Shown here: positions 11,166 to 38,056 of the stretch, one piece after another
Numbering within the stretch: position 1 is the first letter of the stretch
How the letters are laid out: each line of letters begins with the position of its first letter
Source: Pseudodesulfovibrio sp.
Lineage (GTDB): Bacteria > Desulfobacterota > Desulfovibrionia > Desulfovibrionales > Desulfovibrionaceae
Direction: 5' to 3'
Assembly: GCA_016342345.1 (NCBI GenBank)
Contig: JAEINO010000031.1
Location: 1-39,997 of the forward strand
DNA: 39,997 nucleotides
Notes under the pieces: generated by a model
Told to the model about the DNA's origin: nothing
Databases searched by the model: none
What the model saw: only the letters and a program-made list of their open reading frames with translations
Translations under genes and position numbers: made by a program

Positions 11166-11169
11166 ATTG

Positions 11170-18218: not shown

Positions 18219-18941
18219 ATGACTCACATTGCTTTCATAACTGGAGCCAGCAAGGGAATTGGAGCGGCAACAGCTGTTCAATTGGCGAAAGATGGTTTTG
18301 ATATCTGGTTGAACTACCGTAGCGACACAGTCGGAGCTCAAGAAGTTGCGACTCAAATTGAAACGCTTGGGCGTCAATGCACCCTACTCAAATTCGATGT
18401 TGCAAATTCGAATGAAGTCGAGAATCATCTCACCCCCATGCTTGAAAAAGAAGTGCCTTTCGCGCTTGTCAACAATGCAGGATTCACGCGTGATGGACTT
18501 ATGATGCTGATGAGTTCCGAAGAATGGAACAGTGTTCTCCAGGTACATCTCAACGGTTTCTTTAATGTCACTAAACCAGTTGTCACCAGAATGCTGCGCA
18601 AACGACAAGGGCGCATCGTCAACATCGCTTCCACCTCAGGCGAGACAGGCGTCCCAGGACAAACCAACTACTCCGCGGCCAAGGCCGGACTCATTGGAGC
18701 AACCCGCTCTCTCGCTTTGGAAGTTGCCAAGAGAAACATATTGGTCAACGCAGTTGCTCCTGGATTTATTGAAACGGCAATGCTAGACGAACTCCCCATG
18801 GATGAGATCAAATCTACAATCCCACTTGGTCGTGCCGGGACCCCTGAAGAAGTAGCTGGAACCGTTTCTTTTCTCTGTTCTCCTTCGGCCAGTTACATCA
18901 CCGGGCAAACAATTTCAGTGAACGGTGGCATTTACACCTAG
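18219..18941 (+). CDS. fabG: 3-oxoacyl-ACP reductase (FabG/ApeQ-like)
   Basis: 240 residues, classical short-chain dehydrogenase. The NADPH-binding TGASKGIG is at 8-15 and NNAG at 85-88; the catalytic triad S138, Y151 and K155 sits at the same numbers as in E. coli FabG. It reduces the beta-keto group of ACP-bound chains after each extension. It is the first gene after the promoter and is followed 15 bases later by a ketosynthase. In aryl-polyene clusters the equivalent gene is the ApeQ ketoreductase. Housekeeping FabG cannot be excluded by sequence alone, but the neighbours make a dedicated polyene role likely. Confidence 0.92.
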
Positions 18942-18956
18942 CCACCCAAAATAAGA

Positions 18957-20171
18957 ATGTACAAAGTAGCAATTACAGGCATCGGAATCATATCCGTATT
19001 GGGAAACACGGTCGACACTGTGTCATCTTCGCTATACAAAGGGCAATCGGGCATTGTCATTGATGAAGACCGAGTTGAGTTGGGCTTCGAAAGTCCCCTC
19101 ACAGGAATCATCAACGACTTTGATCCGGCAACTCGACTTTCACGCAAACAAAGAAAAACCATGACCTACCATGCCATCCAGGCCCATGCAGCCACTTTGG
19201 ATGCATTAGAAATGTCTGGGTTACAACCCGAGGATTGGCAAAACGACCAAACTGGGTTGATATTTGGTTGCGACTCAAGCAGCATTGCTGCCATTGAGCA
19301 GGTTCGTATTCTCAAGGAAAAAGGCAACACTGGCCTCATCGGAAGCGGTGCTGTTTTTCGTTCTATGACATCAAATGTAACCATGAACCTCAATATGCTA
19401 CTCAAAACGCGTGGGGCCGCATGGTCAGTAAGTTCCGCGTGCTCAAGCGGAGGACATGCGATAGGGCAGGCATTTACCCTCATATCTACAGGCCAACAGG
19501 ATCGCGTAATATGCGGAGGCGCACAAGAAATCAATTGGGAATCCATGTGCAGTTTTGACGGACTTGGTGCTTTCACTTCCAACACAGATGCCCCCGCAAA
19601 AGCCTGTCGTCCATTTGATAAAAATCGTGATGGCCTTGTTCCTAGCGGCGGCGCGGCATCCATCGTATTGGAAAGGTATGATCACGCCAAAGCCAGGGGA
19701 GCCCATATTTTAGGAGAGGTCTGCGGTTATGGTTTTTCCTCCGATGGAGAACAGCTTTCCAATCCGAGCACAACGGGTCTATCCATTGCCGGCGCAAAGG
19801 CCTTGAAATGGGCAAAGATTGCCCCCAAGGACATAGATTATGTTTGCGCCCACGCGACAGCAACACCCGCCGGTGACAGTGCAGAAGCTGCCAATCTAAG
19901 AAACCTCTTCGAAGGATGTTCTCCTACCATCTCCTCAACCAAGTCAATGACTGGTCATGAACTGTGGATGTCTGGAGCAAGCCAAGTAGTATACTCTACG
20001 ATTATGGCCAGGGACGGCTTCATAGCACCAAACATCAACCTCGAAACTTTAACTCCGGAAGCTGAAGGGCTGCATATTACACCAACAACCATTGAACGCG
20101 CGCCCCGGTCCGTGCTGTGCAATTCTGCTGGATTCGGTGGTACAAATTCCTGTCTGGTCCTCAAATACTGA
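18957..20171 (+). CDS. Beta-ketoacyl-ACP synthase, FabB-like (KS 1)
   Basis: 404 residues with a full thiolase-fold ketosynthase. The Cys-His-His triad is intact: C162 in SSACSSGG, H299 in CAHATAT and H334 in MTGHE, with K329. These match the FabB positions (163, 298, 333). It condenses malonyl-ACP with a growing acyl chain. The HATATPAGD segment differs from the usual HGTGTxxND, a FabB-like trait. It follows the ketoreductase and overlaps the next gene by one base (TGATG). The best counterpart in aryl-polyene clusters is one of the FabB-type ketosynthases (ApeR or ApeO). Confidence 0.9.
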   Translation: MYKVAITGIGIISVLGNTVDTVSSSLYKGQSGIVIDEDRVELGFESPLTGIINDFDPATRLSRKQRKTMTYHAIQAHAATLDALEMSGLQPEDWQNDQTGLIFGCDSSSIAAIEQVRILKEKGNTGLIGSGAVFRSMTSNVTMNLNMLLKTRGAAWSVSSACSSGGHAIGQAFTLISTGQQDRVICGGAQEINWESMCSFDGLGAFTSNTDAPAKACRPFDKNRDGLVPSGGAASIVLERYDHAKARGAHILGEVCGYGFSSDGEQLSNPSTTGLSIAGAKALKWAKIAPKDIDYVCAHATATPAGDSAEAANLRNLFEGCSPTISSTKSMTGHELWMSGASQVVYSTIMARDGFIAPNINLETLTPEAEGLHITPTTIERAPRSVLCNSAGFGGTNSCLVLKY

Positions 20172-21658: not shown

Positions 21659-22881
21659 AACGAGTTGTTATAACCGGTATGGGAGCAGTTTCTCCCTTTG
21701 GCACAGGAACAGACTCACTCATGAAGAGCCTAAGTGCTGGCGATAGTGGCATCCGGTCCATGGATGATTTTGCACAAATCACCGGACTTAAACCAACAAT
21801 TGCCGGTAAAGTCCCAGACTACAATGCAAAATCAATCCCCCGTAAATTTCGGCGCACAATGTCGCCAATGTCAATATTTGCCACTCTGGCCGCCCAAGAA
21901 GCCATTTCCCAAGCCGGACTCAACAAAGATATCCTTAGTGGAGGGACAACTGGACTATCTGTCAGTTCAACAGTTGGCAGCGTTCAGGCACTCCAGTCTT
22001 TCTTCACCACATTTTTGAATGGGTTCAGCATCGAGGAAATCAAAGCAACAGAGTTCTTCAAGATCATGAACCACAGTTGTGCGGCAAACCTTGCTCAGTG
22101 CTTTGAAATCACCGGCAGGGTCATGGCGCCGTCTGCGGCTTGCTCTACAGGATGCCAGACCATCGGACTGGCAGCAGAGGCCATTGCTATTGGAAAACAG
22201 GATATAATGCTTTGCGGTGGAGCCGACGAGCTACACCCTCTCACCGTTGGCACATTCGATATTATTCAAGCAGCTTCGACCGGTTACAATAAACAACCAA
22301 CGTCCACTCCCCGTCCGTTTGACCGCGACAGAGACGGAATTGTCTGTGCTGAAGGTGCTGGCATTCTTGTATTGGAATCTCTCGATTCAGCACAGGAACG
22401 GGGAGCTGATATTCTGGCAGAAATCATTGGTTTCTCTTCAACTGCAGATCCATCAAACCTTGCCAGCCCCAGTTCGGCTGCTATAGCCCGATGCATGCAA
22501 CTCGCACTCGACGACGCAGGCATTCCGCCTGAAGCAGTGCAATACGTCAATGCACATGCAACCGGCACCAAGTTGGGAGATGCGGCAGAAAATTCGGCCA
22601 TTGCGTCTCTCTTTGGGAGCAAGCCACTTGTCAGTAGCCTCAAAGGGCACCTTGGGCATACCATGGCTGCCAGTGGGGCACTTGAAACAATTGCCACAGT
22701 CTTAATGATGAATAATGGGCTTGTGGTTCCAACAAGAAATCTGATAAACATCGCACCGGACTGTATGGGAAGCAGGCACATCAGACAAATCGAACGCCAA
22801 CCAGTTTCAATGGCGCTAAAAAACAGCTTCGCCCTTGGCGGAATTAATACATCGATAATTCTCCGGAGAGATAATGACTGA
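21655..22881 (+). CDS. Beta-ketoacyl-ACP synthase, FabF-like (KS 2)
   Basis: 408 residues, starting inside the stop of the flavoprotein gene (ATGA). The triad is complete: C163 in SAACSTGC, H301 in NAHATGT and H335 in GHLGHT, with K330. The GTG-type motifs and overall length match FabF-like elongating ketosynthases. It is one of three catalytically complete ketosynthases in the cluster. Its stop overlaps the start of the ACP gene by eight bases, so the two are probably translated together and work together. Which extension step it performs cannot be read from the sequence. Confidence 0.92.
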   Translation: MKRVVITGMGAVSPFGTGTDSLMKSLSAGDSGIRSMDDFAQITGLKPTIAGKVPDYNAKSIPRKFRRTMSPMSIFATLAAQEAISQAGLNKDILSGGTTGLSVSSTVGSVQALQSFFTTFLNGFSIEEIKATEFFKIMNHSCAANLAQCFEITGRVMAPSAACSTGCQTIGLAAEAIAIGKQDIMLCGGADELHPLTVGTFDIIQAASTGYNKQPTSTPRPFDRDRDGIVCAEGAGILVLESLDSAQERGADILAEIIGFSSTADPSNLASPSSAAIARCMQLALDDAGIPPEAVQYVNAHATGTKLGDAAENSAIASLFGSKPLVSSLKGHLGHTMAASGALETIATVLMMNNGLVVPTRNLINIAPDCMGSRHIRQIERQPVSMALKNSFALGGINTSIILRRDND

Positions 22882-23146
22882 CCTAGAAGCAATACAACTT
22901 ACCAACGAACTACTTGCTGAAGAATTTGAACTCGAACTTGACCAAATGAAACCAGAGGCATTGTTCAAAGAAGACCTTGAACTCGACAGCCTTGATGCTG
23001 TTGATATGGTTATTGTTCTTGAACAGGCTTTCAATTTTAAAATCAAAAAAGATGAAGCCTTTAAGAAAATCCGCTCTTTGGGCAATCTCCATGATTTCGT
23101 TCTCGACAAAAAGAATGAGCACCCCACCGCTGTATCAAATACTTAA
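22874..23146 (+). CDS. Acyl carrier protein 1
   Basis: 90 residues, acidic, with the phosphopantetheine-attachment motif ELDSLDAVDMVI; the modified serine is S39. This carries the growing chain as a thioester. It lacks the long tail of a PKS fusion and is of ordinary type II size. It overlaps the end of the FabF-like gene by eight bases. A second ACP lies at 34578-34829, as in aryl-polyene clusters, which normally encode two (ApeE and ApeF types). No phosphopantetheinyl transferase is in the window. Confidence 0.92.
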   Translation: MTDLEAIQLTNELLAEEFELELDQMKPEALFKEDLELDSLDAVDMVIVLEQAFNFKIKKDEAFKKIRSLGNLHDFVLDKKNEHPTAVSNT

Positions 23147-23264
23147 AAAAACAAGCTCGCCTCACCCGGCATAAGAAATCGGCAAAAAAAAGAGTAGCCA
23201 ATAAAAAGCGACTTGGTCTATAACCCAAACTCTTTATAGCAAATCATTACCTGGGAGGCTTTTC

Positions 23265-23858
23265 ATGCAAAAATGTTTCAAGTTGTTATTCCTCATAGCC
23301 CTTATGACTCTCGCCGGTTGTGCCTCTGCATTGATGGCCAAAACCGAAGATGGGATGAAACCGTACAACCCAGACCCGGAAAAGGCCACCGTCGTCTTCA
23401 TGCGCCCATCTGCTTTTGGGGGTGCGATTCAGTCCTCTGTCTACCAGTACGACCAAACTGACCCAAAATTCATTGGCATCATTTCTACTAACTACAAGAT
23501 CGCTTACCAAGCAGAACCGGGGCAGCACACTTTCATGGTCGTCGGAGAAAATGCAGACTTTCTGGAAGCAGATCTCGCTGCCAACCACATATACTACGTG
23601 ACAGTTGAACCCCACTGGGGCGCTTTCAAAGCCCGTTTTTCCCTTGACCCGATTCCAGAATCGGAATTTGCCACCGAAGATTTCAAAGACGATTTAGCTG
23701 AATGTCATTTCGTCCAAAACACCCCAGCGTCCTTGCAGTGGTTCGGTGACAACAAGGCGGATATTATCGAGAAACACGACTATTTTTACACAAAATGGCA
23801 AGAAAAGCCTGCGGAAGAACGACACCGCCTCGCCAAAACAGACGGACGTCCACTCTAA
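23265..23858 (+). CDS. Outer-membrane lipoprotein, DUF2846-like
   Basis: 197 residues behind GGGAGG. The signal peptide ends in the lipobox LAGC, giving a lipid-modified Cys at 19. The body has FMRPSAFGGAIQSSVY and the PGQHTFMVVGENADF segment, which resemble DUF2846/carboxypeptidase-regulatory-like lipoproteins of unknown function. There is no Asp at +2 after the Cys, so it should go to the outer membrane. It is separated from the ACP gene by 118 non-coding bases and followed by a terminator hairpin. It is a cell-envelope partner of the lipid product at best by inference. Confidence 0.75.
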   Translation: MQKCFKLLFLIALMTLAGCASALMAKTEDGMKPYNPDPEKATVVFMRPSAFGGAIQSSVYQYDQTDPKFIGIISTNYKIAYQAEPGQHTFMVVGENADFLEADLAANHIYYVTVEPHWGAFKARFSLDPIPESEFATEDFKDDLAECHFVQNTPASLQWFGDNKADIIEKHDYFYTKWQEKPAEERHRLAKTDGRPL

Positions 23859-23866
23859 ACAGCCTT

Positions 23867-23891
23867 GGCCGGGACATCCCGGCCATTTTTA
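23867..23891 (+). terminator. Rho-independent terminator inside the polyene cluster
   Basis: A perfect seven-base-pair GC stem, GGCCGGG (23867-23873) and CCCGGCC (23878-23884), closes an ACAT loop and is followed by ATTTTTATTT. It lies between the DUF2846-like lipoprotein and the acyltransferase start at 23898. It would stop or reduce transcription from the upstream promoter, so the downstream genes either depend on read-through or on an internal promoter I cannot place. Confidence 0.7.
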
Positions 23892-23897
23892 TTTATT

Positions 23898-24638
23898 ATG
23901 AACACCCTACGCACCATATGGATCAACCTCGGTATCTACACAGGCACCGTTATTTGGACTATCACGGGGATTCTTGCTTCACCCTTTGTCTACGTACTGT
24001 TGCGAAGCACAAAAAAATACACTCACGCCAAAGCTGCTCGCAAACTGATATGGATATATGGCCGTGTCTGGATAAGAATGGTTTCCCTATTCACACCGAT
24101 TCACTTGCCCGAAGACGACATACCATCTCCTTGCGTACTTGTTGTCAATCACGCCTCTTTTTTTGATGTGTACTTCATAGGGGTTCTACCTCAGTGGAAT
24201 GTTTGTCTAGCGGTCCGCGACTGGCCTTTTAGCATCCCTTTCTTCAAACCCTTCATGCTTGCTGCAGGATACATCAACACTGAAAGCTCTGAACCGGGAC
24301 ATGTCATTGCACAATCCGTCAAGACTATTCAGGACGGCTGCACAATGATCTATTTCCCAGAGGGAACACGAAATTCGACCGGTAATTTAAGACGATTCTA
24401 TTCTGGTGCTTTTCACACTGCCCTTACAGCAAATGTTCCAGTCGTTCCTCTTTGTATTTCAGGTACAAACACACTTCTACCCAGGGGGGCGAAATGTATC
24501 CGACCTACAACAATAAAGACCCGCTTGCTTCCTCCCGTATATCCAGATAGATATCAGCGACTCGCTAATGGACATATCGCGATGCGAAAAGATGTCAAAA
24601 AAATCATGACTCAAGCTCTTCAGGAAATGGCTGTATAA
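23898..24638 (+). CDS. PlsC-type 1-acylglycerol-3-phosphate acyltransferase-like protein (ApeD-like)
   Basis: 246 residues from ATG 23898. An earlier TTG would lie inside the terminator stem, so I reject it. A hydrophobic N-terminus (about 8-35) anchors it in the inner membrane. The acyltransferase motif I is NHASFFD (H85, D90) and motif III is FPEGTR (153-158). PlsC-family enzymes transfer an acyl chain to a lysophospholipid-like acceptor. In aryl-polyene clusters the homologue (ApeD-type) is thought to move the polyene or a fatty acid to the lipid anchor. There is no clear Shine-Dalgarno, since the region is taken by the terminator tail. Confidence 0.87.
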   Translation: MNTLRTIWINLGIYTGTVIWTITGILASPFVYVLLRSTKKYTHAKAARKLIWIYGRVWIRMVSLFTPIHLPEDDIPSPCVLVVNHASFFDVYFIGVLPQWNVCLAVRDWPFSIPFFKPFMLAAGYINTESSEPGHVIAQSVKTIQDGCTMIYFPEGTRNSTGNLRRFYSGAFHTALTANVPVVPLCISGTNTLLPRGAKCIRPTTIKTRLLPPVYPDRYQRLANGHIAMRKDVKKIMTQALQEMAV

Positions 24639-24673
24639 AATTACCAAACTCAAACAAGGCGATGAGGATAAAA

Positions 24674-25075: not shown

Positions 25076-25125
25076 ATACGTCGAAGAGGTGGAATACTTT
25101 CTACCGCTCTGCTTAAAGGAATAAA

Positions 25126-26601
25126 ATGTCTGGCAATAGATGCTGGGGTAGTCCTTTCACGGACACCGAGATCACGGATGCCAAAGATAATGGCAAGCTC
25201 CTGACCATGGAGCTTGAGTTAAGTCGAATCTGCAACCTCAAGTGCATATACTGCTACGCAGAATCCGGCAGCCAACTTGCCAACGAACTCTCGTTTGACG
25301 AAATTGTTAATGCTCTAGATCAAGGAGTAGAACTCGGCGTACGCAAAATCATCGTCCTCGGTGGAGGCGAACCCTTGGCATATCCGCGTATCATGGATGT
25401 ACTGCGCGCCATTCGCGAAAGGAACCTTGAAATCGAGCTCTTTACTAACGGAACCTTACTAACACAGGAAATCGTCGAAGAGCTCAAGAGACTGGAAGTC
25501 AATCCTGTCATCAAATTCAATAGCCTGCGCCCAGAAATTCAGGACCACCTCGCCGGTAAGGTTGGCGCCTTTGAATCCATACAAAAGGGACTAGAACTGT
25601 TACAAAAAGCAGGCTACCCTAACGACACCCTTTCCTTAGGGGCGCAAACAGTTATTTGCCAACCAAATTACGACGAATTACCCACGATGTGGCGTTGGCT
25701 ACGTTCCAAAGACATCATCCCCTATTTCGAGACTATCACTGAACAAGGTCGAGCCAAACAGCATGGAGATCTTGTTGTCACGCCCTCAAAACTGCAACAG
25801 CTATTCGACAAACTTTCCCAAATCGACCGAGATGAATTTGGTATAGAGTGGGAACCCAAACCTCCTGTCGCAGCCTTTACCTGTCAACGTCACCTCTATT
25901 CCTGCACCGTCACCTCACTCGGCGATATCATCCCCTGTCCCGGAGTTGACATCCCAGCCGGCAACATTCGACAAATGACGATAAAAGACATCATAGCCAA
26001 AAGTGATGTTTTCAAAAATCTTCGCAACATTCGTGAAACCATCAAGGGCAAATGCAAGGACTGCGACTTGAGCAATGAGTGCTACGGCTGTCGAGGTATG
26101 GCCTATCACCATACCGGTGACTATCTTGCCTCGGACCCGCTCTGTTGGCGCAACACACCAGTACAGACAATGCAGCTCCCACTACCAGCGTGTAAAGTCA
26201 TCCCGCACCGCGACTCCATGTTGCTCATAGATACACTTGTCACATCTATGCAGGGGCAAGGACGGGCTGAAACGACACGACCTGCCACATGCATTGCCTC
26301 AGAGGCTTCAAGTGTACTCACCCCCCTGATTTTTGTGGAACTCATAGCCCAAACATATGCCGCCGTTAAAGGATGGGAAATAGCCCAGGCAGGCAAGGAG
26401 TTCCCAATAGGCTACCTTGTCGGCGTACAAAAGTTTGAAATACTAAAACCAGCGCACGCTGGTGACAGGCTTGTCATCGATGTTTCCACTGTTGGGGAAT
26501 TTGAGGGTTTTGCCATCGTTGCAGGAACGATCTTAAACAAGGACGAAATCCTGGCTACAGGCAAAATAAAACTATGGGTTCCTCAAGGAGAAGGCGAGTA
26601 A
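25126..26601 (+). CDS. Radical SAM-SPASM enzyme fused to an ApeP-like hotdog dehydratase subunit
   Basis: 491 residues. The radical SAM motif is RICNLKCIYC (C36, C40, C43), followed by GGGEPL and a complete TIM-barrel-like region. Cysteines between 253 and 340 (FTCQ, CPG, CKDC, CYGC, LCW) form a SPASM/Twitch-like auxiliary Fe-S region. From about 351 to 491 the chain changes to a hotdog fold: PHRDSMLLID at 360-369 and FVELIAQTYAA at 403-413 match ApeP/FabA-like 3-hydroxyacyl-ACP dehydratase subunits, including the Glu at 405. No GHFP histidine is present in this half. The fusion is unusual; the standard aryl-polyene cluster has ApeP as a separate protein. A dehydratase coupled to radical chemistry on the same ACP-bound chain is an inference. 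Confidence 0.85.
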   Translation: MSGNRCWGSPFTDTEITDAKDNGKLLTMELELSRICNLKCIYCYAESGSQLANELSFDEIVNALDQGVELGVRKIIVLGGGEPLAYPRIMDVLRAIRERNLEIELFTNGTLLTQEIVEELKRLEVNPVIKFNSLRPEIQDHLAGKVGAFESIQKGLELLQKAGYPNDTLSLGAQTVICQPNYDELPTMWRWLRSKDIIPYFETITEQGRAKQHGDLVVTPSKLQQLFDKLSQIDRDEFGIEWEPKPPVAAFTCQRHLYSCTVTSLGDIIPCPGVDIPAGNIRQMTIKDIIAKSDVFKNLRNIRETIKGKCKDCDLSNECYGCRGMAYHHTGDYLASDPLCWRNTPVQTMQLPLPACKVIPHRDSMLLIDTLVTSMQGQGRAETTRPATCIASEASSVLTPLIFVELIAQTYAAVKGWEIAQAGKEFPIGYLVGVQKFEILKPAHAGDRLVIDVSTVGEFEGFAIVAGTILNKDEILATGKIKLWVPQGEGE

Positions 26602-30252: not shown

Positions 30253-30626
30253 GCATACTCGAAAATGCGATAATCGCTGCAGGAGCACAAATCCAGGTTA
30301 AAGGCGACGAATTCATGAAAGAATTCACCTTCGAAGCCGATTTCATCGGATTTGACGGCCATTTCCCAGACAACCCGATACTGCCTGCCGTCGTTCAGCT
30401 TATGGCTGGCACTGTTGCAACCGGAGAAGCCGTAGGAGAGCAACTTTTTGCGAACGGTGTAAGCCGAGCAAAGTTTCTCAAGCAGATCAGACCGGGAAAC
30501 CTTCTTCTGGTGAAGGGTACACTGACGGCAAAAGATGAAATCATCACTGCAGCGATTAAGATGTCAGTCGATGGGGAAATCGCATCGACATTTCAAATCA
30601 AGTTAACCCGCCAGGGGGAACAATGA
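30249..30626 (+). CDS. ApeI-like 3-hydroxyacyl-ACP dehydratase (hotdog)
   Basis: 125 residues, single hotdog domain. The active-site GHFPDNPILP holds the catalytic histidine H38. The position that carries the catalytic Glu or Asp in FabZ/FabA is occupied by Gln (AVVQLMAG), so by itself this subunit has only half of the usual dyad. It overlaps the DUF3261 gene (ATGA) and the thioesterase gene (ATGA). In characterised aryl-polyene systems ApeI is reported to work as a pair with ApeP; here the ApeP counterpart is the hotdog end of the radical SAM fusion. Confidence 0.87.
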   Translation: MSILENAIIAAGAQIQVKGDEFMKEFTFEADFIGFDGHFPDNPILPAVVQLMAGTVATGEAVGEQLFANGVSRAKFLKQIRPGNLLLVKGTLTAKDEIITAAIKMSVDGEIASTFQIKLTRQGEQ

Positions 30627-31081
30627 GAAAGCCCTACTTTAAAGGAATCGACGGTGCCCCTGAACCTTTGAGAGCCACTTTTAAACGTAAAGTACGTTTT
30701 GAAGAAGTAGATCCTCTTGGCATCGTATGGCACGGACGCTATCCCAGCTACTTTGAAGACGGAAGAGTCACACTCGGACATTTGAACGGCATCGGCTACC
30801 TGGATTTTAGGGAACAAAATGTAGCTGCGCCCATCAAACAGATGCACATGGATTACATTAAACCCCTCTATTACGGTGACACTGCTCATATCGAGGCCAT
30901 CCTTCACTGGAACGAAGCGGCACGGCTCAACTACGAATTTATCATACGCAACGACACCGGAGAAATAACCACTACCGGCTATACGGTGCAGCTTTTTATA
31001 GACAGTAACCAAGAACTGATGATGTTCTTGCCAGATTTCTACATGAACTTCCTTCAGCGCTGGAAAGCCGGAAAACTGTAA
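30623..31081 (+). CDS. 4HBT-family acyl-ACP/CoA thioesterase (ApeK-like)
   Basis: 152 residues. The 4-hydroxybenzoyl-CoA thioesterase motif EVDPLGIVWHGRYPSYFED is at 28-46 with the catalytic Asp at D30. It hydrolyses thioesters of acyl-ACP or acyl-CoA; in aryl-polyene clusters the equivalent (ApeK) is thought to remove stalled or mis-primed chains, or to release product. It is coupled by overlap to the dehydratase, and its stop directly abuts the next start. Confidence 0.87.
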   Translation: MRKPYFKGIDGAPEPLRATFKRKVRFEEVDPLGIVWHGRYPSYFEDGRVTLGHLNGIGYLDFREQNVAAPIKQMHMDYIKPLYYGDTAHIEAILHWNEAARLNYEFIIRNDTGEITTTGYTVQLFIDSNQELMMFLPDFYMNFLQRWKAGKL

Positions 31082-32467
31082 ATGGCTCGCATCCTACTCA
31101 TATCAACGAACACCACGACCGAACCGTATCCGGTATACCCGCTCGGGATGTCAGTGATCGCCTCTGCGCTAAACGCAGCAGGCCACACTGTCAGACAATT
31201 CGATTTCCTCATGGCCAAGTCCAGCCTTGAGTGCCTCGGGCAGGCGTTAATTGAGTTTCGTCCTGACATGACAGGAATTTCCCTGCGCAATATTGATAAT
31301 GTGGACTCTCTTTCATCAGACACAAACTGGTATCTCGGGAATGTAAAAGAAGTCACCGCCTTCCTGAAAGCACAGGAACAAACTGTCATAGTCGGCGGCC
31401 CTGGATTCTCCCTGATGCCTGATGACATACTTGATTTTCTCGGTGCCGACCACGGAGTGGTTGGGGAAGGCGAACGAAAAATAGTCAAACTCGTCTCCAT
31501 GATTGAATCCGGAGTCAAAACCCCAAAAATATTTAAAGCGGAATCGGGATTACAGTCGAAGGACATGCACACTCCACTTTGGGATCAGGCCCTCGTAGAT
31601 TTCTATTTAGAACAAAGCGGCATCGTGAACATACAGACCAAGCGAGGGTGCGAAAATAGATGCAACTATTGCTCATACCCTACCATCGAGGGAAGAGTCA
31701 TCAGGCCTAGAGATGCCGCAGAGGTTGCGGAAGAAATTGAAAAACTGCACAGAAAATTCAACGTTGAAACCATATTTTTTACCGACTCTGTTTTCAACGA
31801 CAGTCACGGACACTACCTTGAAGTTGCAGAACACCTTGCAAGACGGAATCTGCCTGTCCAGTGGAGTGCATTTTTTCAGCCGACCCTTATCAAAACAGCA
31901 GATCTCAAGCTCCTCAAACGTTCTGGTCTGCAGGCCATGGAAGTGGGAACAGATGCTTCTACCGATGCGACCCTTACAGCAATGGGAAAACCATTTCTAT
32001 TTGAGGACGTCATCCGCTTCAACAAAGCCTGCGTATCTGAACACATCCCTTGTGCCCACTTTGTCATATTCGGTGGTCTTGACGAAACCCCGAAGACTGT
32101 CCAACAGGGAATCAATAACCTGAATGAACTGGACAACTGTGTCGTTTTTCCCTTTTCCGGCATCAGACTGTATAAGGGGACCCCTCTTTACTCACACGCA
32201 AAGCGAGAGGGCATTATCTCACCAGACACATCACTCCTTAAACCACTATATTATTTTTCACCCCAAATTGATCCAGACGCCATGAATGAAGCTCTTATCA
32301 AGGGCTTTTCAGGAAGGAGAGACCGGATATTCCCTCCGTCCGACGGCCAGGACAGGATGAATGTATTGCGACGTTTCGGCTATCGAGGACTTTTATGGGA
32401 TACGCTTATCAAGTTTCCAGAAACCGAAAAGCAAGCTCAACCAATAAAGGACACGGTATGGGCATAA
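31082..32467 (+). CDS. B12-type radical SAM enzyme of lipid-biosynthesis context
   Basis: 461 residues. The N-terminal 150 residues have a cobalamin-binding-like Rossmann fold with VGGPGFSLMPDDIL, but the DxHxxG base-off motif is missing. The radical SAM motif is RGCENRCNYC (C190, C194, C197), followed by FFTDSVFND and VGTDAS, typical of this subgroup. Such enzymes methylate or otherwise functionalise unreactive carbons; related genes are often found beside fatty-acid-like or hopanoid lipid genes. No dedicated partner is visible except the flavoprotein and the second radical SAM gene in the same cluster. It overlaps the next gene by ten bases. The reaction and substrate are unknown. Confidence 0.8.
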   Translation: MARILLISTNTTTEPYPVYPLGMSVIASALNAAGHTVRQFDFLMAKSSLECLGQALIEFRPDMTGISLRNIDNVDSLSSDTNWYLGNVKEVTAFLKAQEQTVIVGGPGFSLMPDDILDFLGADHGVVGEGERKIVKLVSMIESGVKTPKIFKAESGLQSKDMHTPLWDQALVDFYLEQSGIVNIQTKRGCENRCNYCSYPTIEGRVIRPRDAAEVAEEIEKLHRKFNVETIFFTDSVFNDSHGHYLEVAEHLARRNLPVQWSAFFQPTLIKTADLKLLKRSGLQAMEVGTDASTDATLTAMGKPFLFEDVIRFNKACVSEHIPCAHFVIFGGLDETPKTVQQGINNLNELDNCVVFPFSGIRLYKGTPLYSHAKREGIISPDTSLLKPLYYFSPQIDPDAMNEALIKGFSGRRDRIFPPSDGQDRMNVLRRFGYRGLLWDTLIKFPETEKQAQPIKDTVWA

Positions 32468-33630
32468 AAAAAACAGACGCACTCATCGTAATACCCGTCT
32501 ACAATCACGGGACAACGCTTCGCCAGGTTGTCGAAGAGACTCTGGCCATTCATCCCGACGTCTTGGTCGTTGACGATGGAAGTACGGACTGCGGCACCGA
32601 CACCATAGCAGACCTTCCGGCACAGATTATCCGTCATGAAAACAATAAGGGTAAAGGGCAGGCAATACTGACCGCAGTGGCAGAAGCCAGAAGGCTCAAA
32701 AAAACCCACATTATTACTCTTGATGCAGATGCTCAGCACTTCCCTTCTGATATTCCTTCATTCAACGTGGCCATTGAAGCTGAACCACGGGCCATATTCA
32801 TTGGAGCGCGACGGTTTACAGTCCCCAACATACCTGCTTCTTCTAAATTTGGTCGCAGTTTTTCCAACTTCTGGCTCCGGGTCCAGACTGGCTTAAAAGT
32901 ATCCGATGTCCAGTGCGGTTTCCGCGCCTACCCAATCGCAATATTCGATGCCATCAAAACATCAGAGCGTCGATTTGCCTTTGAAATCGAAGTTCTGGTC
33001 AAGGCAGCATGGGCCGGATATCCGCTCATGGACGTGGACATAGATGTCTTTTACCCCACCCCCGAAGAAAGAATTTCACATTTCAGGGCTCTCAAGGACA
33101 ATGTGGAAATCTCACTTATGAATACTCGATTGACTGCACGGTCCTTCCTCCCGCTTCCTCACCGGCAATACACGGAAAATGAAGACGGCAAGGTAAGTCC
33201 GATTCATCCTCTTAAATCTCTTCGTATATTGCTGGAAAAAAACAAAACACCAAGTTCACTGGCCTTGGCTGGCACACTCGGCATGCTTCTCGGGACTCTT
33301 CCCTTGATAGGACTTCATTCACTATCAATTGTTATTATCCTTGGATACTTTCGGCTCAACAAGATCACAGGGCTGGCTGTCAGCCAACTTTGTATTCCAC
33401 CCTTCGTTCCGGCCTTATGCATCGAAGTGGGCTACTACATACGCCACGGACATTTTCTTACCGACATATCACTCCAGACACTCGGCTATGAAGCTCTCGA
33501 CAGAATTTGGGAATGGATGCTCGGCTCTCTGGTCCTCGGCCCAGTGCTGGGACTGAGCATAGGAATTGTGATTTATCTGATGGCCCTCGCTGTTAAAATA
33601 CGATTAAACCGCAAGGGAACCACTGCATAA
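32458..33630 (+). CDS. GT2 glycosyltransferase with C-terminal DUF2062 membrane domain
   Basis: 390 residues from ATG 32458, which has AAGG upstream; a longer start at 32395 lies inside the previous gene and is rejected. The GT2 domain shows VIPVYNHG, VVDDGSTD (D39-D44) and DADAQH (89-94). From about 265 on, the DUF2062 membrane region has several helices (LALAGTLGMLLG, LSIVIILGYF, ALCIEVGYYI and a final helix). In aryl-polyene clusters a single ApeJ protein combines glycosyltransferase and acyltransferase parts; here they are two adjacent genes. It would add a sugar to the polyene lipid at the membrane. Confidence 0.87.
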   Translation: MGIKKTDALIVIPVYNHGTTLRQVVEETLAIHPDVLVVDDGSTDCGTDTIADLPAQIIRHENNKGKGQAILTAVAEARRLKKTHIITLDADAQHFPSDIPSFNVAIEAEPRAIFIGARRFTVPNIPASSKFGRSFSNFWLRVQTGLKVSDVQCGFRAYPIAIFDAIKTSERRFAFEIEVLVKAAWAGYPLMDVDIDVFYPTPEERISHFRALKDNVEISLMNTRLTARSFLPLPHRQYTENEDGKVSPIHPLKSLRILLEKNKTPSSLALAGTLGMLLGTLPLIGLHSLSIVIILGYFRLNKITGLAVSQLCIPPFVPALCIEVGYYIRHGHFLTDISLQTLGYEALDRIWEWMLGSLVLGPVLGLSIGIVIYLMALAVKIRLNRKGTTA

Positions 33631-33650
33631 TCAATACAAAACTATTTCCA

Positions 33651-34574
33651 ATGAATATGAACAAAAAAAACAATACAGCATGGTCCAGCCGAAGCCTGGC
33701 CTCGGCATTTGCCCATAAAATATTCTACTATGCCATCAGGATAGCAGGACGGGGCATCGCCTATTTCATGCTTTTTTTTGTTGTGGGATTCTACACTTGT
33801 ATCCCAAAGATAAGAAATCGCTCCCGAGAATATCGAATCAAAAGATTTGGCGAACGCTCATTCCTAGGCGAGCTGACCGATTGCTTCAGACTACAAATGG
33901 AATTCGGCAAAATGCTTGTCGATCGCGCTGTAATGGGAATTCTTGGTGAATTCATCATGTCTGCGACTGAACAAGACAAACAAACAATGACTGACCTGAT
34001 TTCACAAGGGAGGGGGTTGATTCTTATCACTGGACATGTTGGGTGCTGGCAACTCGGCATGTCGGTCCTTGACTCGCTAGACGTTCCCAAAGCCGTGGTC
34101 ATGTACCGAGATGACTCTGACGTGGACAAGCATTACTTTGAACATAATAAAAAGACAAATGAACTCCCATTCACCATCATCGACCCACGCAGCCCCATGG
34201 GTGGCACCCTTGAAATGATGAATGTACTCAAGAAGGGCGGCATCCTCTGCATGATGGGCGATAGAAATTTTGGAAGCCCAAATGGAATCGTTGACGTTAA
34301 TTTCATGAATGGCAATATTAACGTTCCCATTAGCGCGTATAAGATCGCTTCCGCCATGGAAGTTCCCATTATTGCAACCTTCTCACACCGCACCGGAGCG
34401 GGCCAAGGACAAATTTGGATTTCAAGGTTAATTGATGTTCCCCAAAATCTAGGACGCAGCATGGATGCATACCGCCCTTACGCCCAACTGTTTGCTGACG
34501 GCTTGGACGAGTTCGTCGATGCGCACCCATTTCAATTCTACAACTTCTTCAACATGTGGAAAAACGCTGAGTAA
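33651..34574 (+). CDS. LpxL/HtrB-like acyltransferase (ApeJ acyltransferase half)
   Basis: 307 residues. An N-terminal membrane segment (about 34-52) leads into the LpxL/LpxM-type fold. The HX4(D/E) motif is present as GHVGCWQ, with H129 and Gln at 134 in place of the usual acidic residue. The later GDRNFGSPNG and VPIIATFSHRTG segments match the family. The enzyme transfers an acyl group, here probably the polyene or a fatty acid, to a glycosylated lipid. An A8 tract lies in codons 4-7. It follows the GT2-DUF2062 gene and precedes ACP 2 by three bases. Confidence 0.8.
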   Translation: MNMNKKNNTAWSSRSLASAFAHKIFYYAIRIAGRGIAYFMLFFVVGFYTCIPKIRNRSREYRIKRFGERSFLGELTDCFRLQMEFGKMLVDRAVMGILGEFIMSATEQDKQTMTDLISQGRGLILITGHVGCWQLGMSVLDSLDVPKAVVMYRDDSDVDKHYFEHNKKTNELPFTIIDPRSPMGGTLEMMNVLKKGGILCMMGDRNFGSPNGIVDVNFMNGNINVPISAYKIASAMEVPIIATFSHRTGAGQGQIWISRLIDVPQNLGRSMDAYRPYAQLFADGLDEFVDAHPFQFYNFFNMWKNAE

Positions 34575-34577
34575 TAT

Positions 34578-34829
34578 ATGAGCCTCAAAGATAAGATCAA
34601 AAAGACACTGGTACAGGAACTGGACCTCATCGACATCAACCCCAACGAAATCAATGATAAAGATCCTCTTTTCGGAGATGAAGGACTTGGCTTGGATTCT
34701 CTGGACGCAGTTGAGATAGTCGTCCTGGTGCAGAAGTTCTTTAACGCCGAAATCAAGGATATTGAAGAAGGGAAGATTGCACTTCAGTCGGTCAACTCGC
34801 TCGCCAAATTCATCGAGGAAAAGCAATAA
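34578..34829 (+). CDS. Acyl carrier protein 2
   Basis: 83 residues, with GLDSLDAVEIVVLV; the phosphopantetheine site is S41. It shares the short acidic four-helix layout of ACP 1 but is clearly a different sequence. Placed between the acyltransferase and the active ketosynthase of the KS/CLF pair, it is the likely carrier for the chain made by that pair, whereas ACP 1 sits with the other two ketosynthases. This division is inference from gene order. Confidence 0.92.
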   Translation: MSLKDKIKKTLVQELDLIDINPNEINDKDPLFGDEGLGLDSLDAVEIVVLVQKFFNAEIKDIEEGKIALQSVNSLAKFIEEKQ

Positions 34830-34831
34830 CC

Positions 34832-36025
34832 ATGTCGGATCTCGGGACTATAAACATCATCGGAGCCGCTTGCATATGTGCTGCCGGTGCAACTCTCGAC
34901 GACTGTATGGATTCAATGCTCGCAAAACGAGGTGCCCCTGTTGCACCTTCGCTATTCAAATGCGAGCTGACAGAAATCTACCCCGTTTTCGAAGTACCAA
35001 ACGAATTCATAAACAATTCCAGTCCTCATCTGACAAGAACCGCAAATCTGTTGAGAGCGACTGTCGACGATGCTTTTACAGGTTCCGGCATATCTCACAA
35101 AAACCTTGAAAGCCTCAAGGTCGGCGTATGTATCGGTACATCAGTCGGGGCGTCGCTCAGTTTTCTCGACTTCTACAGAACATGGAAACAGGGTAGGCAC
35201 CCAGAACTTGACCCTATTCATCGCTACCTGAAAAGCAATCCGGCAGACATCATCGTAAATCAATATGCACTGGACGGACCAAGCCAAACGGTCGTCAATG
35301 CCTGCACTTCAGGTACAGATGCTATTGGCATCGGCGCATCCTGGATACGGCACGGTCTCTGCGACATCGTCATTGCTGGCGGCACCGACGAACTCAGTGA
35401 AATATCATACAATGGATTCGCAAGCCTGAAAATCACCAGCCCGGAACCCTGTCGCCCTTTCGACAAGGACCGTAGCGGGCTCAACCTTGGCGAAGGAGCT
35501 GGAGTACTTCTGCTTGCGTCTGACAATGCTGTAGATAAACTTTCGCCCAGAATTCGGGGCAAGGTCCTCGGGTATGGCACTTTCGGCGATGCTCACCACC
35601 TAACCGCCCCACATCCAAAAGCGCGCGGACTAAAAATGGCTCTGAAAGCTGCATTTAAAAACACTACTCTTGGGTATGGAGATATTGACTTCATCAACGT
35701 TCATGGAACCGGCACTCCAACAAATGATCATGTGGAAGGACTCGCTCTGCAGGAGATATTCCCCACAACACCATATTCCGCCACCAAGGGATTCACCGGA
35801 CATACTCTCGGTGCGGCGGGAGCTATTGAAGCAGCATTCACCCTGGCGTGTATGGAGCGGGGAGAACTTCCCCCAAGCAAAGGATTTGCAGAAGTTGATC
35901 CCGGGATAGGCTGTAGGCCCATCGCCGAACGGACCCAAAAGTCATGCCGATATGCTCTCTCCCAATCCCTTGCCTTTGGAGGGAACAATTCCGTTCTCAT
36001 CCTTGAAGGAGGTGAAGGCATATGA
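34832..36025 (+). CDS. Beta-ketoacyl-ACP synthase of the KS/CLF pair (KS 3)
   Basis: 397 residues with a complete triad: C158 in VNACTSGT, H291 in NVHGTGTPTND and H324 in GFTGHT, with K319. It is the catalytic half of a heterodimeric condensing enzyme; the CLF gene directly follows with a four-base overlap (ATGA). In aryl-polyene clusters the equivalent pair is ApeO and ApeC. It starts two bases after the ACP 2 stop. The three complete ketosynthases plus one CLF suggest two condensation systems in the same cluster. Confidence 0.9.
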   Translation: MSDLGTINIIGAACICAAGATLDDCMDSMLAKRGAPVAPSLFKCELTEIYPVFEVPNEFINNSSPHLTRTANLLRATVDDAFTGSGISHKNLESLKVGVCIGTSVGASLSFLDFYRTWKQGRHPELDPIHRYLKSNPADIIVNQYALDGPSQTVVNACTSGTDAIGIGASWIRHGLCDIVIAGGTDELSEISYNGFASLKITSPEPCRPFDKDRSGLNLGEGAGVLLLASDNAVDKLSPRIRGKVLGYGTFGDAHHLTAPHPKARGLKMALKAAFKNTTLGYGDIDFINVHGTGTPTNDHVEGLALQEIFPTTPYSATKGFTGHTLGAAGAIEAAFTLACMERGELPPSKGFAEVDPGIGCRPIAERTQKSCRYALSQSLAFGGNNSVLILEGGEGI

Positions 36026-36894
36026 ACGTGACTATCAAGGGGATCGGCATCGCGGCACCATTCGGAGGAAAAGCCGAACTCAAGGCGACGGTTTTGGGTG
36101 AAATCCCTCCGAACGCCCCGCCGCTATACAAAACTACGACAGACAAGTTAAGCAAGTTCATTCCTGCTCGAAAACTCAGACGCATCGACCACTTCACTCG
36201 CATGGCGCTTCTGGCCGCATTCCGAGCGCTTGATGATGCCAACAAGGTGAAAGACCTCCCCCAGAATCTCGGTATTATTCTTTGCACCGGCTATGGTCCC
36301 TCTCAGACCACATTCGACTTTCTGGATTCGATCATCGATGATGGAGCCAAACTCGCTTCGCCCCTCGCCTTCTCCCATTCGGTGCACAACATCCCAACTG
36401 GTGTTCTTTCTCTACTATTGGGTGCGCCCTGCCCCCAGACAACCATCTGCCAGCTAACAAATCCCGTCATGACAGGCCTTCAGACAGCTGCGTTATGGCT
36501 GGCTGAAAAACGGGTCGAATCCGTACTCTTTGGTGCCGTAGATGAGACCACTCCCCTTTTGGAAGAAAATGCACACAGGCTCGCCATGGAAAAAGGACGT
36601 GAGATCAGCACTCCCGTCAGCGAAGGGGCTGTCTTCTTTCTCCTCAACAATCAAGAGCATGGGTACGCAACCATTGAAACGAATACGTCTCTTTCTGAAC
36701 TCAACAACATACCGCTTTTCAGCCACCGCGAACTCCCTAACGCATTGAACCTCGGAACTCTTTTCGGAGCTCTCCCGGTCACAGGAGCCTTCAACCTGGC
36801 CGCGGCTGCATTGTCCATAGAAGGAACAGATCGCAATGCTGGCTACAATGAAGGAAACACGTGGTTACAAGTCTCAGGTCGAACCCATGCATAA
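36022..36894 (+). CDS. Chain-length factor, cysteine-less ketosynthase (ApeC-like)
   Basis: 290 residues, much shorter than a full ketosynthase. The active-site cysteine position is Gln (Q144 in TICQLTNPVMTG, aligned by the distance to the following Gly), the classical CLF substitution. The C-terminal HGTGT and GHT histidine motifs are absent, because the second half of the fold is missing, as in the Ketoacyl-synt_2-type CLFs of aryl-polyene clusters. It controls chain length and supports the paired ketosynthase. It overlaps the ligase gene by eight bases. Confidence 0.87.
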   Translation: MNVTIKGIGIAAPFGGKAELKATVLGEIPPNAPPLYKTTTDKLSKFIPARKLRRIDHFTRMALLAAFRALDDANKVKDLPQNLGIILCTGYGPSQTTFDFLDSIIDDGAKLASPLAFSHSVHNIPTGVLSLLLGAPCPQTTICQLTNPVMTGLQTAALWLAEKRVESVLFGAVDETTPLLEENAHRLAMEKGREISTPVSEGAVFFLLNNQEHGYATIETNTSLSELNNIPLFSHRELPNALNLGTLFGALPVTGAFNLAAAALSIEGTDRNAGYNEGNTWLQVSGRTHA

Positions 36895-38056
36895 CTTTTT
36901 ATTGACCACCGATGACTTTCAAGAAATCCTTTCAAGCCTTCTTTTAGCCGAACTGCCATACGCAGCTCGAATGCAGTTCACTGAAGGGGCATCCCTGACG
37001 CCAGCCTTTGTGCCCACAACACAACTCCTCCCCAATCTTGCTGAGATATCCAGCAAGGTGAGCGCGATGTTTCATACCCCAACGCCTCACACGCTGGGAG
37101 CCTGTTCACTCCGTCAGTGGGCCGAAGCACTTCACGAAGATTGGGGAAACGAAAAGCAGGACATCACCTTCTTCACATCAGGAAGCACTGGAGAACCGAC
37201 CCCTGCAACACAAGCATTCGCAAATCATGAACAAGAAGTTACCGCGCTTGCAGAGATTTTTCATGAACGAAAACGTGTTGTCAGCTTCGTCCCAAGACAT
37301 CATATTTATGGATTTCTCTTCTCGATACTTCTTCCCAAAGCATTAGGTGTTGAAGTCAAATGGGCGGTTCCAATTCCCACACCGGGTTTAACCGAGAGTC
37401 TTCAGAAAGACGACCTTATCGTTGCCTTTCCACTCTTTTGGGAAAAACTCAAAGAAATGAAAATACAGTTCAGCAGAGATCTTTACGGTGTCACATCAAC
37501 CGGACCATGCCCTGCAGAAACCATCCATGCGCTCAAACAGAACGGCCTAAAACGAATCTATGAGATATACGGTTCATCAGAAACCGGTGGCGTAGGCTAC
37601 AGAAAAGACCCTACCTCCGGGTACACCTTACTCCCCTTCTGGGCACGGACAGATGATGAATCCTGCCTGCAAAGAACTAACTCCAATCATGGAAACCAAG
37701 AGTACGCACTTCAAGACATCTTGAATTGGAACGACGCCACAACCTTTACTCCCATGCGAAGGACCGACAATGCTGTCCAAGTGGCCGGAATAAACGTTTA
37801 CCCATCACACGTTCGAAAGATACTTCTTGAGCATCCGTCAATTGCCGATTGCGCCATCAGGTTAATGAGGCCTAAGGAAGGGACCAGACTAAAGGCACTG
37901 ATAATCCTCAACGACAAGGACAGTGACTTGACTCATCTTGAGTTCTCAATAAGAAAATGGGCCAAGAGTCGCCTCAGTCCATATGAACTTCCTGCCGCGT
38001 GGACTTTCAAAGACGAAATTTCAACCAACACACTCGGCAAAGCCCAAGACTGGTAA
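36887..38056 (+). CDS. AMP-dependent acyl-acid ligase (ApeH-like starter-activating enzyme)
   Basis: 389 residues from ATG 36887; a longer start at 36836 lies inside the CLF gene. The ATP-binding A3 motif is FFTSGSTGEPTPA, the A5 motif is YEIYGSSETGG, RRTDNAVQVAGINVYP gives A7-A8, and the C-terminal GK (STNTLGKAQDW) supplies the catalytic Lys. The usual Lys after GxP in A3 is Thr here. The length fits the short ligases of aryl-polyene clusters, which load an aryl acid starter (4-hydroxybenzoate-type) on an ACP. No gene that makes such a starter (ammonia lyase or chorismate lyase) is in the window. Confidence 0.85.
   Translation: MHNFLLTTDDFQEILSSLLLAELPYAARMQFTEGASLTPAFVPTTQLLPNLAEISSKVSAMFHTPTPHTLGACSLRQWAEALHEDWGNEKQDITFFTSGSTGEPTPATQAFANHEQEVTALAEIFHERKRVVSFVPRHHIYGFLFSILLPKALGVEVKWAVPIPTPGLTESLQKDDLIVAFPLFWEKLKEMKIQFSRDLYGVTSTGPCPAETIHALKQNGLKRIYEIYGSSETGGVGYRKDPTSGYTLLPFWARTDDESCLQRTNSNHGNQEYALQDILNWNDATTFTPMRRTDNAVQVAGINVYPSHVRKILLEHPSIADCAIRLMRPKEGTRLKALIILNDKDSDLTHLEFSIRKWAKSRLSPYELPAAWTFKDEISTNTLGKAQDW

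What the first reader, a model, noticed from the sequence alone, without database searches (positions are those of the whole stretch)
18219..38056. Aryl-polyene cluster merged with ladderane-type radical SAM and desaturase genes
Twenty packed genes form a near-complete aryl-polyene type II PKS and export set: FabG, three complete KS, KS/CLF pair, two ACPs, AMP ligase, ApeI/ApeP-like hotdogs, thioesterase, LolA-like carrier, MMPL exporter, DUF3261 lipoprotein, GT2-DUF2062, PlsC and LpxL acyltransferases. Extra genes are a phytoene-desaturase-like flavoprotein and two radical SAM enzymes. Radical SAM, phytoene-desaturase-like and FabB/F genes were proposed for ladderane lipids in anammox bacteria. 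The combination suggests an undescribed polyene-derived lipid with radical or flavin tailoring. The gene content is seen; the product is inferred.
Basis: partly seen in the sequence, partly recalled or inferred. Interest (0 to 1): 0.85.

Follow-up and report, generated by a model that had tools for sequence, protein, structure and literature searches.

The report
Aryl-polyene cluster with optional radical enzymes
A sulfate-reducing bacterium carries a flexirubin/aryl-polyene-type gene set for a membrane-bound polyene lipid, plus two radical enzymes that its relatives gain and lose independently, which may make the unknown role of a 'ladderane' enzyme family testable.

Summary
The gene content is real: 21 same-strand ORFs at 18219-38056. 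The core is aryl-polyene (APE) machinery: profiles of its genes match 16 of 18 proteins of the E. coli CFT073 APE locus (two weakly), and 18 of 22 window segments match a flexirubin-like Persicobacter cluster. The phytoene-desaturase-like flavoprotein is not a ladderane-type extra: it is in all 45 fetched family clusters whose contig reaches that stretch, including those without radical SAM genes, and in the flexirubin-like cluster. The true additions are two radical SAM enzymes; the B12 type is NCBIfam TIGR04072 ('rSAM_ladder_B12', 684 bits, cut-off 360). Of 288 family genomes, 62 have the core marker KS1: 13 with both enzymes, 11 with only the B12 type, 7 with only the SPASM type, 31 with neither. 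On a tree of 40 clusters they changed at least 5 and 9 times. They look like modular tailoring enzymes, not one ladderane pathway. Best reading: an outer-membrane polyene lipid modified by TIGR04072, most likely by methylation. Aryl starter and product are unproven. Related deltaproteobacterial clusters were reported in 2009 as fatty-acid clusters. New variant of a known kind.

The parts
18219..18941 (+). FabG-type ketoreductase (ApeQ / FlxB-like)
   Evidence: NCBIfam FlxB 308 bits (cut-off 340) and a FabG model 305 bits (cut-off 273); ApeQ 268.6 bits
18957..20171 (+). KS1, FabB/ApeR-type ketosynthase; matches the first KS of the Persicobacter flexirubin-like cluster
   Evidence: 552 bits
20171..21658 (+). 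CrtI/CrtD-like FAD oxidoreductase (longest ORF from 20117; likely start ATG 20171); core gene of this cluster type in the family
   Evidence: TIGR02733 85 bits, far below cut-off; best PDB match 4dgk, nearly full length; 45 of 45 uncut family clusters; Persicobacter 407 bits
21655..22881 (+). KS2, FabF/ApeR-type ketosynthase
   Evidence: (ApeR 412.7 bits)
22874..23146 (+). ACP1 (ApeF-like), DSL serine motif
23265..23858 (+). putative lipoprotein, sporadic (5 of 48 clusters)
   Evidence: (no family)
23865..24638 (+). PlsC-type acyltransferase (ApeD-like)
   Evidence: 68.7 bits
24662..25075 (+). small lipoprotein, ApeA homologue
   Evidence: 128 bits to E. coli ApeA
25126..26601 (+). radical SAM/SPASM enzyme (aa 1-345) fused to ApeP-like hotdog dehydratase (aa 347-491)
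   Evidence: in the family fused also in G625, separate ORFs in the others
26601..27233 (+). LolA-like carrier (ApeL); longest ORF from 26574
   Evidence: LolA2_flexi 114.8 bits (cut-off 125)
27230..29596 (+). MMPL/RND exporter (ApeM)
   Evidence: 180 bits; 447.7 bits
29593..30252 (+). LolB/DUF3261-like lipoprotein (ApeN-like, weak)
   Evidence: 13.9 bits
30249..30626 (+). ApeI-like hotdog dehydratase
   Evidence: (47.7 bits)
30623..31081 (+). 4HBT thioesterase (ApeK)
31082..32467 (+). cobalamin-binding radical SAM enzyme, TIGR04072
   Evidence: 684.4 bits, cut-off 360; CxxxCxxC C190/C194/C197; dN/dS 0.109
32458..33630 (+). GT2 glycosyltransferase with DUF2062 (matches ApeJ); longest ORF from 32395
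   Evidence: (171.7 bits)
33651..34574 (+). LpxL-type acyltransferase (also matches ApeJ)
   Evidence: 92.3 bits; which part of ApeJ was not checked
34578..34829 (+). ACP2 (ApeE-like)
34832..36025 (+). KS3 (ApeO-like)
   Evidence: (269 bits)
36022..36894 (+). chain length factor (ApeC-like)
   Evidence: 19.4 bits; 86 bits
36887..38056 (+). AMP-forming acyl/aryl ligase (ApeH-like); longest ORF from 36836
   Evidence: TIGR02372 4-coumarate-CoA ligase 263.6 bits (cut-off 334.7); ApeH 96 bits

Best explanation
This is a flexirubin/APE-type cluster of a Pseudodesulfovibrio. Inferred from homology: the AMP ligase loads a starter acid (aromatic by analogy) onto an ACP; KS3/CLF, FabG and the ApeI/ApeP hotdog pair extend it with malonyl units and dehydrate each time without enoyl reduction, giving a conjugated polyene; the thioesterase releases it; PlsC, GT2 and LpxL join it to a lipid anchor; MMPL, LolA and the lipoproteins carry it to the outer membrane. 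The CrtI-like flavoprotein works in the core pathway on the polyene (isomerisation or redox of a double bond). Shown here: two radical SAM enzymes are optional additions tied to this cluster and gained or lost independently. Most likely TIGR04072 adds a methyl group to an sp2 carbon of the head or chain, as many cobalamin radical SAM enzymes do (recalled), and the SPASM enzyme makes a separate oxidative or C-C change on the carrier-bound chain.
For: Profiles of the cluster genes match 16 of 18 E. coli CFT073 APE proteins: 13 at 68 bits or more, ApeI at 47.7, ApeC (19.4) and ApeN (13.9) weakly; none for ApeB and ApeG. 18 of 22 window segments match the Persicobacter flexirubin-like cluster, which also has an aromatic ammonia-lyase and an AMP ligase (AMPL only 9 bits). 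FAD in 45 of 45 uncut family clusters, 21 of 21 among those found by the B12 bait. At the thresholds used, the radical SAM genes occur in the family only at these clusters: B12 24 of 24; SPASM 19 of 20 inside the fetched loci, the 20th (G581) 104 bases beyond the fetched end. Assortment 13/11/7/31; at least 5 and 9 changes. dN/dS 0.11 for both radical SAM segments. Best solved relative of TIGR04072 is 6wte, a tryptophan C2-methyltransferase. ApeB has no match among the ORFs of the fetched clusters.
Against: No aromatic starter source found in the genome: no chorismate lyase PF04345; the only PF00221 lyase sits in what I read as a histidine-use operon. So 'aryl' is by analogy. The methylation guess is not forced: the next NCBIfam family after TIGR04072 is BzaD (196 bits, cut-off 450) and the second solved relative is 6fd2, AprD4, of a family NCBIfam calls diol-dehydratase. 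Clusters without TIGR04072 do not have an ApeB-like methylase either, so replacement of ApeB is not shown. The two radical genes are correlated in raw counts (Fisher p 0.005), though the tree shows no coupling in its five independent pairs, too few to exclude it. Outside the family the flavoprotein is not constant: 13 of 25 TIGR04072 loci of at least 24 kb. No chemical data.
Confidence: 0.72

Rival explanations
1. A ladderane-like pathway: the flavoprotein and radical SAM enzymes turn the polyene into fused carbocycles.
For: The short name of TIGR04072 points to ladderane loci (its documentation was not seen). Rattray 2009 found radical SAM and phytoene-dehydrogenase genes in syntenic clusters of Kuenenia and Desulfotalea. 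Larger clusters elsewhere in the phylum add further radical SAM genes and a second KS3-like gene.
Against: The flavoprotein is present in clusters without either radical SAM gene; the two radical SAM genes are not visibly coupled; no ladderanes were found in Desulfotalea; Kuenenia genes gave none in E. coli and its two CrtI homologues made no lycopene.
Confidence: 0.08
2. Polyunsaturated fatty acid or hydrocarbon synthesis, as proposed for Desulfotalea: the ligase loads a fatty acid and no aryl group is involved.
For: No aryl starter source found in the genome; Desulfotalea makes C31:8 and C31:9 hydrocarbons.
Against: The ligase's best NCBIfam family is 4-coumarate-CoA ligase, below its cut-off, and it matches ApeH; two distant TIGR04072 loci (G348, G134) carry an ammonia-lyase similar to the Persicobacter one about 9 kb from TIGR04072 (whether it uses tyrosine or histidine was not tested); the APE-type envelope genes and the ApeA homologue are present.
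Confidence: 0.17
3. The radical SAM genes are passengers without a role in the lipid.
For: 31 of 62 KS1-positive family genomes have neither.
Against: In 288 family genomes, at the thresholds used, they occur only at this cluster, with dN/dS 0.11; TIGR04072 lies directly between TE and GT2 in 23 of 24 family clusters.
Confidence: 0.03

Closest known systems
Flexirubin-type cluster (Persicobacter plasmid pPP6; Chitinophaga flxA-Y)
   Same: Profiles of FabG, KS, ACPs, hotdog pair, TE, KS/CLF, LolA, LolB-like, DUF2062-GT2, MMPL, PlsC, LpxL, FAD oxidoreductase and (9 bits) the AMP ligase match the Persicobacter cluster
   Different: Persicobacter also has an ammonia-lyase, a class I methyltransferase, a polysaccharide deacetylase and a C45 peptidase for which no window profile was a counterpart; the window adds two radical SAM enzymes and an ApeA homologue. 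Chitinophaga was compared by its paper only
E. coli CFT073 aryl polyene locus (apeA-R)
   Same: 16 of 18 proteins matched
   Different: No ApeB or ApeG match; the window adds a second ApeR-type KS, the flavoprotein, the radical SAM genes and a sporadic lipoprotein; glycosyltransferase and acyltransferase of ApeJ are separate genes
'Ladderane' FASII clusters of Kuenenia and Desulfotalea (Rattray 2009)
   Same: By the paper: radical SAM, phytoene-dehydrogenase-like, several KS, ligase and membrane-protein genes
   Different: The window has one TIGR04072 and one SPASM gene; the larger set is not here. No sequence comparison with Kuenenia or Desulfotalea could be made
TIGR04072 (rSAM_ladder_B12)
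   Same: 684 bits, full length
   Different: None seen; I found no tested function for the family (no paper names it)

Membership tests
Aryl polyene (APE) gene cluster | Type II core: KS/CLF, KR, paired hotdog DHs, two ACPs, TE | tested here: met
   ApeC match weak (19.4 bits)
Aryl polyene (APE) gene cluster | Envelope set: LolA, MMPL, LolB-like, acyltransferases, GT2 | tested here: met
   ApeN weak (13.9 bits)
Aryl polyene (APE) gene cluster | Aromatic starter supply (UbiC, TAL or similar) | tested here: inconclusive
   No PF04345; single PF00221 in a hut-like operon; ligase is ApeH/4CL-like
Aryl polyene (APE) gene cluster | Product is an aryl polyene lipid of the cell envelope | not testable with these tools
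   needs chemistry
Flexirubin cluster | Tyrosine ammonia-lyase in the cluster | tested here: not met
   The Persicobacter lyase has no match (E 1e-3) in ORFs of the window or the family clusters
Flexirubin cluster | Dialkylresorcinol genes darA/darB | not tested
   not searched for
Flexirubin cluster | Shared FAD oxidoreductase and first KS of the Persicobacter cluster | tested here: met
   407 and 552 bits; that this is flexirubin FlxV/FlxC is inferred from gene order
Ladderane cluster | Radical SAM plus CrtI-like plus multiple KS genes together | tested here: met
Ladderane cluster | These genes behave as one linked pathway | tested here: not met
   CrtI-like gene constant in the family, radical genes vary separately
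Ladderane cluster | Host makes ladderane lipids | not testable with these tools
   no lipid data
TIGR04072 | Score above curated cut-off | tested here: met
   684.4 vs 360 bits
Radical SAM/SPASM | CxxxCxxC and SPASM cysteines | tested here: met
   C36/C40/C43 and seven further Cys invariant in 15 sequences; PF04055 and PF13186

The most novel reading that the evidence does not exclude
TIGR04072 carries out a radical C-C bond-forming step (ring formation) on a carrier-bound all-trans polyene, and the Desulfovibrionaceae clusters are the simplest living stage of a series that runs from plain aryl-polyene clusters, through one and then three radical SAM enzymes with a second KS, to the anammox ladderane pathway.
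Probability: 0.1. Interest if true: 0.92.

Novelty: new variant of a known kind. Interest (0 to 1): 0.5.

Why it matters
Ladderane biosynthesis was still called unresolved in 2023 (PMC9821293, passages), and radical SAM and CrtI-like genes have been its main suspects. This analysis shows that in this cluster type the CrtI-like gene is no ladderane marker, and that the 'ladderane' B12 enzyme family is a modular add-on to aryl-polyene machinery. Single-contig genomes of the window's own genus with the gene (G613, G631) and without it (G607) share the same core, which offers a direct way to find out what the enzyme does, if those strains are in culture.

Tried and rejected
Rejected: flavoprotein as ladderane marker. 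Rejected: radical SAM-hotdog fusion as a conserved bifunctional enzyme; in the family it is fused only in the window and in G625 (outside the family a shorter ORF in G232 also holds both), and the closest relative G620 has a stop and a frame change between the two. Not supported: B12 enzyme as plain substitute for ApeB. No plasmid relative of TIGR04072 at 1e-40. No structure prediction was run: sequence profiles already placed the folds, and the tool takes too few of my relatives for a deep alignment.

Limits: E-values are for databases of 18 and 22 proteins; read the bits. In one search the sporadic lipoprotein profile also reached E 0.002 (7.8 bits) on the protein that answers to the ApeP-like hotdog; I dropped it, so 18 and not 19 of 22. 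Of 38 KS1-positive, B12-negative family genomes I fetched 24 loci (17 of the 31 with neither radical gene); the other 14 count by search result only. All family clusters were found by the KS1 or the B12 bait; clusters without both would be missed. The tree leaves out 8 of 48 clusters with fewer than 11 of 15 genes; it is a quick tree of the cluster, with 7 of 37 inner branches open, not a species tree. In 'core genes' were counted without a chance control.
Full report
What is there. The window is contig 131 of a 4.15 Mb genome in 149 contigs. The only named relative found, with an 83% identical B12 radical SAM protein, is a 21,014-base contig of a Pseudodesulfovibrio MAG. Genome G620, of the window's own genus, has a contig of that same length with the same match, so the host is taken to be a Pseudodesulfovibrio. 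From 18219 to 38056 lie 21 ORFs on the + strand. The B12-binding radical SAM protein scores 684 bits against NCBIfam TIGR04072, 'rSAM_ladder_B12', cut-off 360. The other radical SAM protein is a SPASM type with CxxxCxxC and seven further invariant cysteines, fused in the window to an ApeP-like hotdog domain.

What the core is. I built profiles from the family clusters (39-46 of 48 for most genes; LolB-like 28, B12 24, SPASM 19, sporadic lipoprotein 5) and searched them against the 18 proteins of the E. coli CFT073 APE locus. Sixteen are matched: ApeA 128 bits, ApeD 69, ApeE 81, ApeF 70, ApeH 96, ApeI 48, ApeJ 172 (GT2) and 92 (LpxL), ApeK 88, ApeL 69, ApeM 180, ApeO 269, ApeP 69, ApeQ 269, ApeR 413, and weakly ApeC 19 and ApeN 14. 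ApeB (head-group methylase) and ApeG have no match. FAD, both radical SAM proteins and the sporadic lipoprotein have no E. coli counterpart. The hotdogs keep the residues seen in ApeP (His, Glu) and ApeI (GHF motif). In the PDB, KS3's third-best match is 6qsp_A (first 9s5h_B); the ApeI-like hotdog reaches 6qsr_A at E 1e-4 behind FabZ entries; the ApeP-like one has 6qsr_B as best match, but only at E 0.024; the CLF reaches 6qsp_B only at 0.54 and 7f28_A at 2e-6. That 6qsp and 6qsr are Ape proteins of Xenorhabdus is recalled.

The flavoprotein. Its profile matches phytoene desaturase 4dgk over nearly the full length. A protein search of plasmids found it in Persicobacter psychrovividus and Aureispira anguillae, both Bacteroidota. 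In Persicobacter it lies in a cluster with an aromatic amino acid ammonia-lyase, FabG, KS, CLF, LolA, DUF2062, an acyltransferase/MMPL protein and an AMP-binding protein. Of 22 window segments, 18 match that cluster, FAD at 407 bits and KS1 at 552, the ligase only at 9. The flexirubin paper (PMC3992019; passages and part 1 of 5 read) names FlxV as a possible reductase; by letter it falls between the exporter genes flxP-U and the ligase FlxY. The Persicobacter order suggests that the flavoprotein is FlxV; I infer this from order only. In Desulfovibrionaceae the gene is present in every fetched cluster whose contig reaches it: 45 of 45, with three more cut; of those found by the B12 bait 21 of 21. 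Outside the family it is not constant (13 of 25 long TIGR04072 loci).

The radical SAM genes. Three baits were searched in 288 family genomes: B12 enzyme at E 1e-100, 24; KS1 at E 1e-100, 62; SPASM enzyme at E 1e-60, 20. All 24 and all 20 are among the 62. Both: 13; B12 only: 11; SPASM only: 7; neither: 31. I fetched loci of all 24 B12-positive genomes (the window's own included) and of 24 of the 38 B12-negative genomes; in the latter a looser tblastn (1e-3) shows no B12 enzyme and the SPASM enzyme in 7 only. The rest of the cluster stays in nearly the same order whether or not the radical genes are there, with some loci rearranged or cut by contig ends. The B12 gene sits directly between TE and GT2 in 23 of 24; the SPASM gene sits before the ApeP-like hotdog, or between KS3 and the ligase in four genomes (G522, G526, G527, G530). 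On a tree of 15 core proteins from 40 clusters the B12 gene changed state at least 5 times and the SPASM gene at least 9; five independent pairs show no coupling, a number too small to exclude some. The raw counts are correlated (Fisher p 0.005), which kinship can produce. Against the closest relative dN/dS is 0.109 (B12), 0.110 (SPASM) and 0.132 (FAD), like the ketosynthases at 0.10-0.17.

Beyond the family. TIGR04072 exceeds its cut-off in 84 of 395 genomes of the phylum. Of the 83 outside the window's own genome I fetched 32 loci; 25 are at least 24 kb long, of which 21 hold 5 or more core genes, 15 hold 10 or more, and 13 the flavoprotein; four hold fewer than 5. Several maps (G380, G324, G285, G307, G095, G252) show a further KS3-like gene before TIGR04072 and a second B12-like match after it; a second CLF match before it appears in G307, G380 and G252. 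Opened gene by gene, G380, G324 and, in the own family, G424 have a long ORF just before TIGR04072, in G380 and G424 a radical SAM protein by its cysteines, and a B12-type one after it. NCBIfam was run on five G380 ORFs only: the first extra enzyme is nearest TIGR04013 (59 bits), the second HpnJ/BchE (197 and 188 bits), all far below cut-offs, and there is a polysaccharide-deacetylase-like gene. Two distant loci (G348, G134) carry an ammonia-lyase beside a weak thioesterase match, about 9 kb from TIGR04072. Rattray 2009 (PMC2649909; abstract, parts 2-4 of 7 and passages read) described deltaproteobacterial clusters syntenic with those of Kuenenia as fatty-acid clusters (the word 'aryl' does not occur) and found C31 polyenes but no ladderanes in Desulfotalea. 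A 2023 metagenome paper (PMC9902471, passages) reports 'ladderane' clusters in Desulfobacterota and other phyla with unknown function.

How it most likely works. By analogy with E. coli (PMC8253772, passages) and flexirubin: loading by the ligase, extension by KS3/CLF, reduction and paired dehydration, release, anchoring and export. The starter is not settled: no chorismate lyase, and the one ammonia-lyase of the genome lies beside genes that I read as imidazolonepropionase, urocanase and formimidoylglutamase (names by eye, not from a search). TIGR04072's best solved relative is a tryptophan C2-methyltransferase (6wte), the second 6fd2, an apramycin biosynthetic oxidoreductase (AprD4); its next NCBIfam family is BzaD (196 bits). 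Methylation of an sp2 carbon is therefore only my first guess (about 0.45 on its own), with ring formation and other radical chemistry open. The SPASM enzyme's nearest solved relative is SkfB (6efn) and its nearest NCBIfam model heme b synthase AhbD (150 bits, cut-off 500); its reaction is not predicted.

Novelty. Paper-library searches: ladderane with radical SAM and gene cluster (10 papers, among them Rattray 2009), aryl polyene with radical SAM (8 papers), TIGR04072 (none), arylpolyene with ladderane and Desulfovibrio (none), aryl polyene with Desulfovibrio, ladderane with arylpolyene and sulfate-reducing and ladderane with Desulfobacterota. By title and start of abstract none describes radical SAM genes as optional parts of an aryl-polyene cluster in Desulfovibrionaceae; most of these papers were not opened, and subscription journals are mostly missing from the library. 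The parts are known kinds; the modular series and the placing of TIGR04072 on an aryl-polyene core appear new.

Noticed in passing
window 16970-17434 (-): DUF4372 fragment, probably a transposase remnant (recalled), between the polysaccharide genes and the cluster.
   Followed up: no
window 2454-14979 (-): Glycosyltransferase, pyruvyltransferase-like and methyltransferase genes at 8521-14979, surface-polysaccharide type; about 2.5-4.6 kb gives a weak tblastn match to the B12 radical SAM protein (25%). ORFs below 8521 on this strand were not run against families.
   Followed up: no
L114 18061-19332, L115 687-2132 (G380) and like places in G324 and G424: TIGR04072 flanked by further radical SAM-type genes and a second KS3-like gene, larger than the window's set and nearer to the gene list published for Kuenenia.
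   Followed up: partly
G348 and G134 loci (L154/L155, L150/L151): Ammonia-lyase genes next to a weak thioesterase match about 9 kb from a TIGR04072 gene, as in flexirubin clusters.
   Followed up: partly
window 23265-23858 (+): Putative lipoprotein without any family at 0.01, found in only 5 of 48 related clusters.
   Followed up: no
window 25126-26601 (+): Radical SAM-hotdog fusion seen also in G625 but as two ORFs in the closest relative G620.
   Followed up: yes
window 38885-39940 (+): 7TMR-DISM sensor-type protein near the contig end.
   Followed up: no
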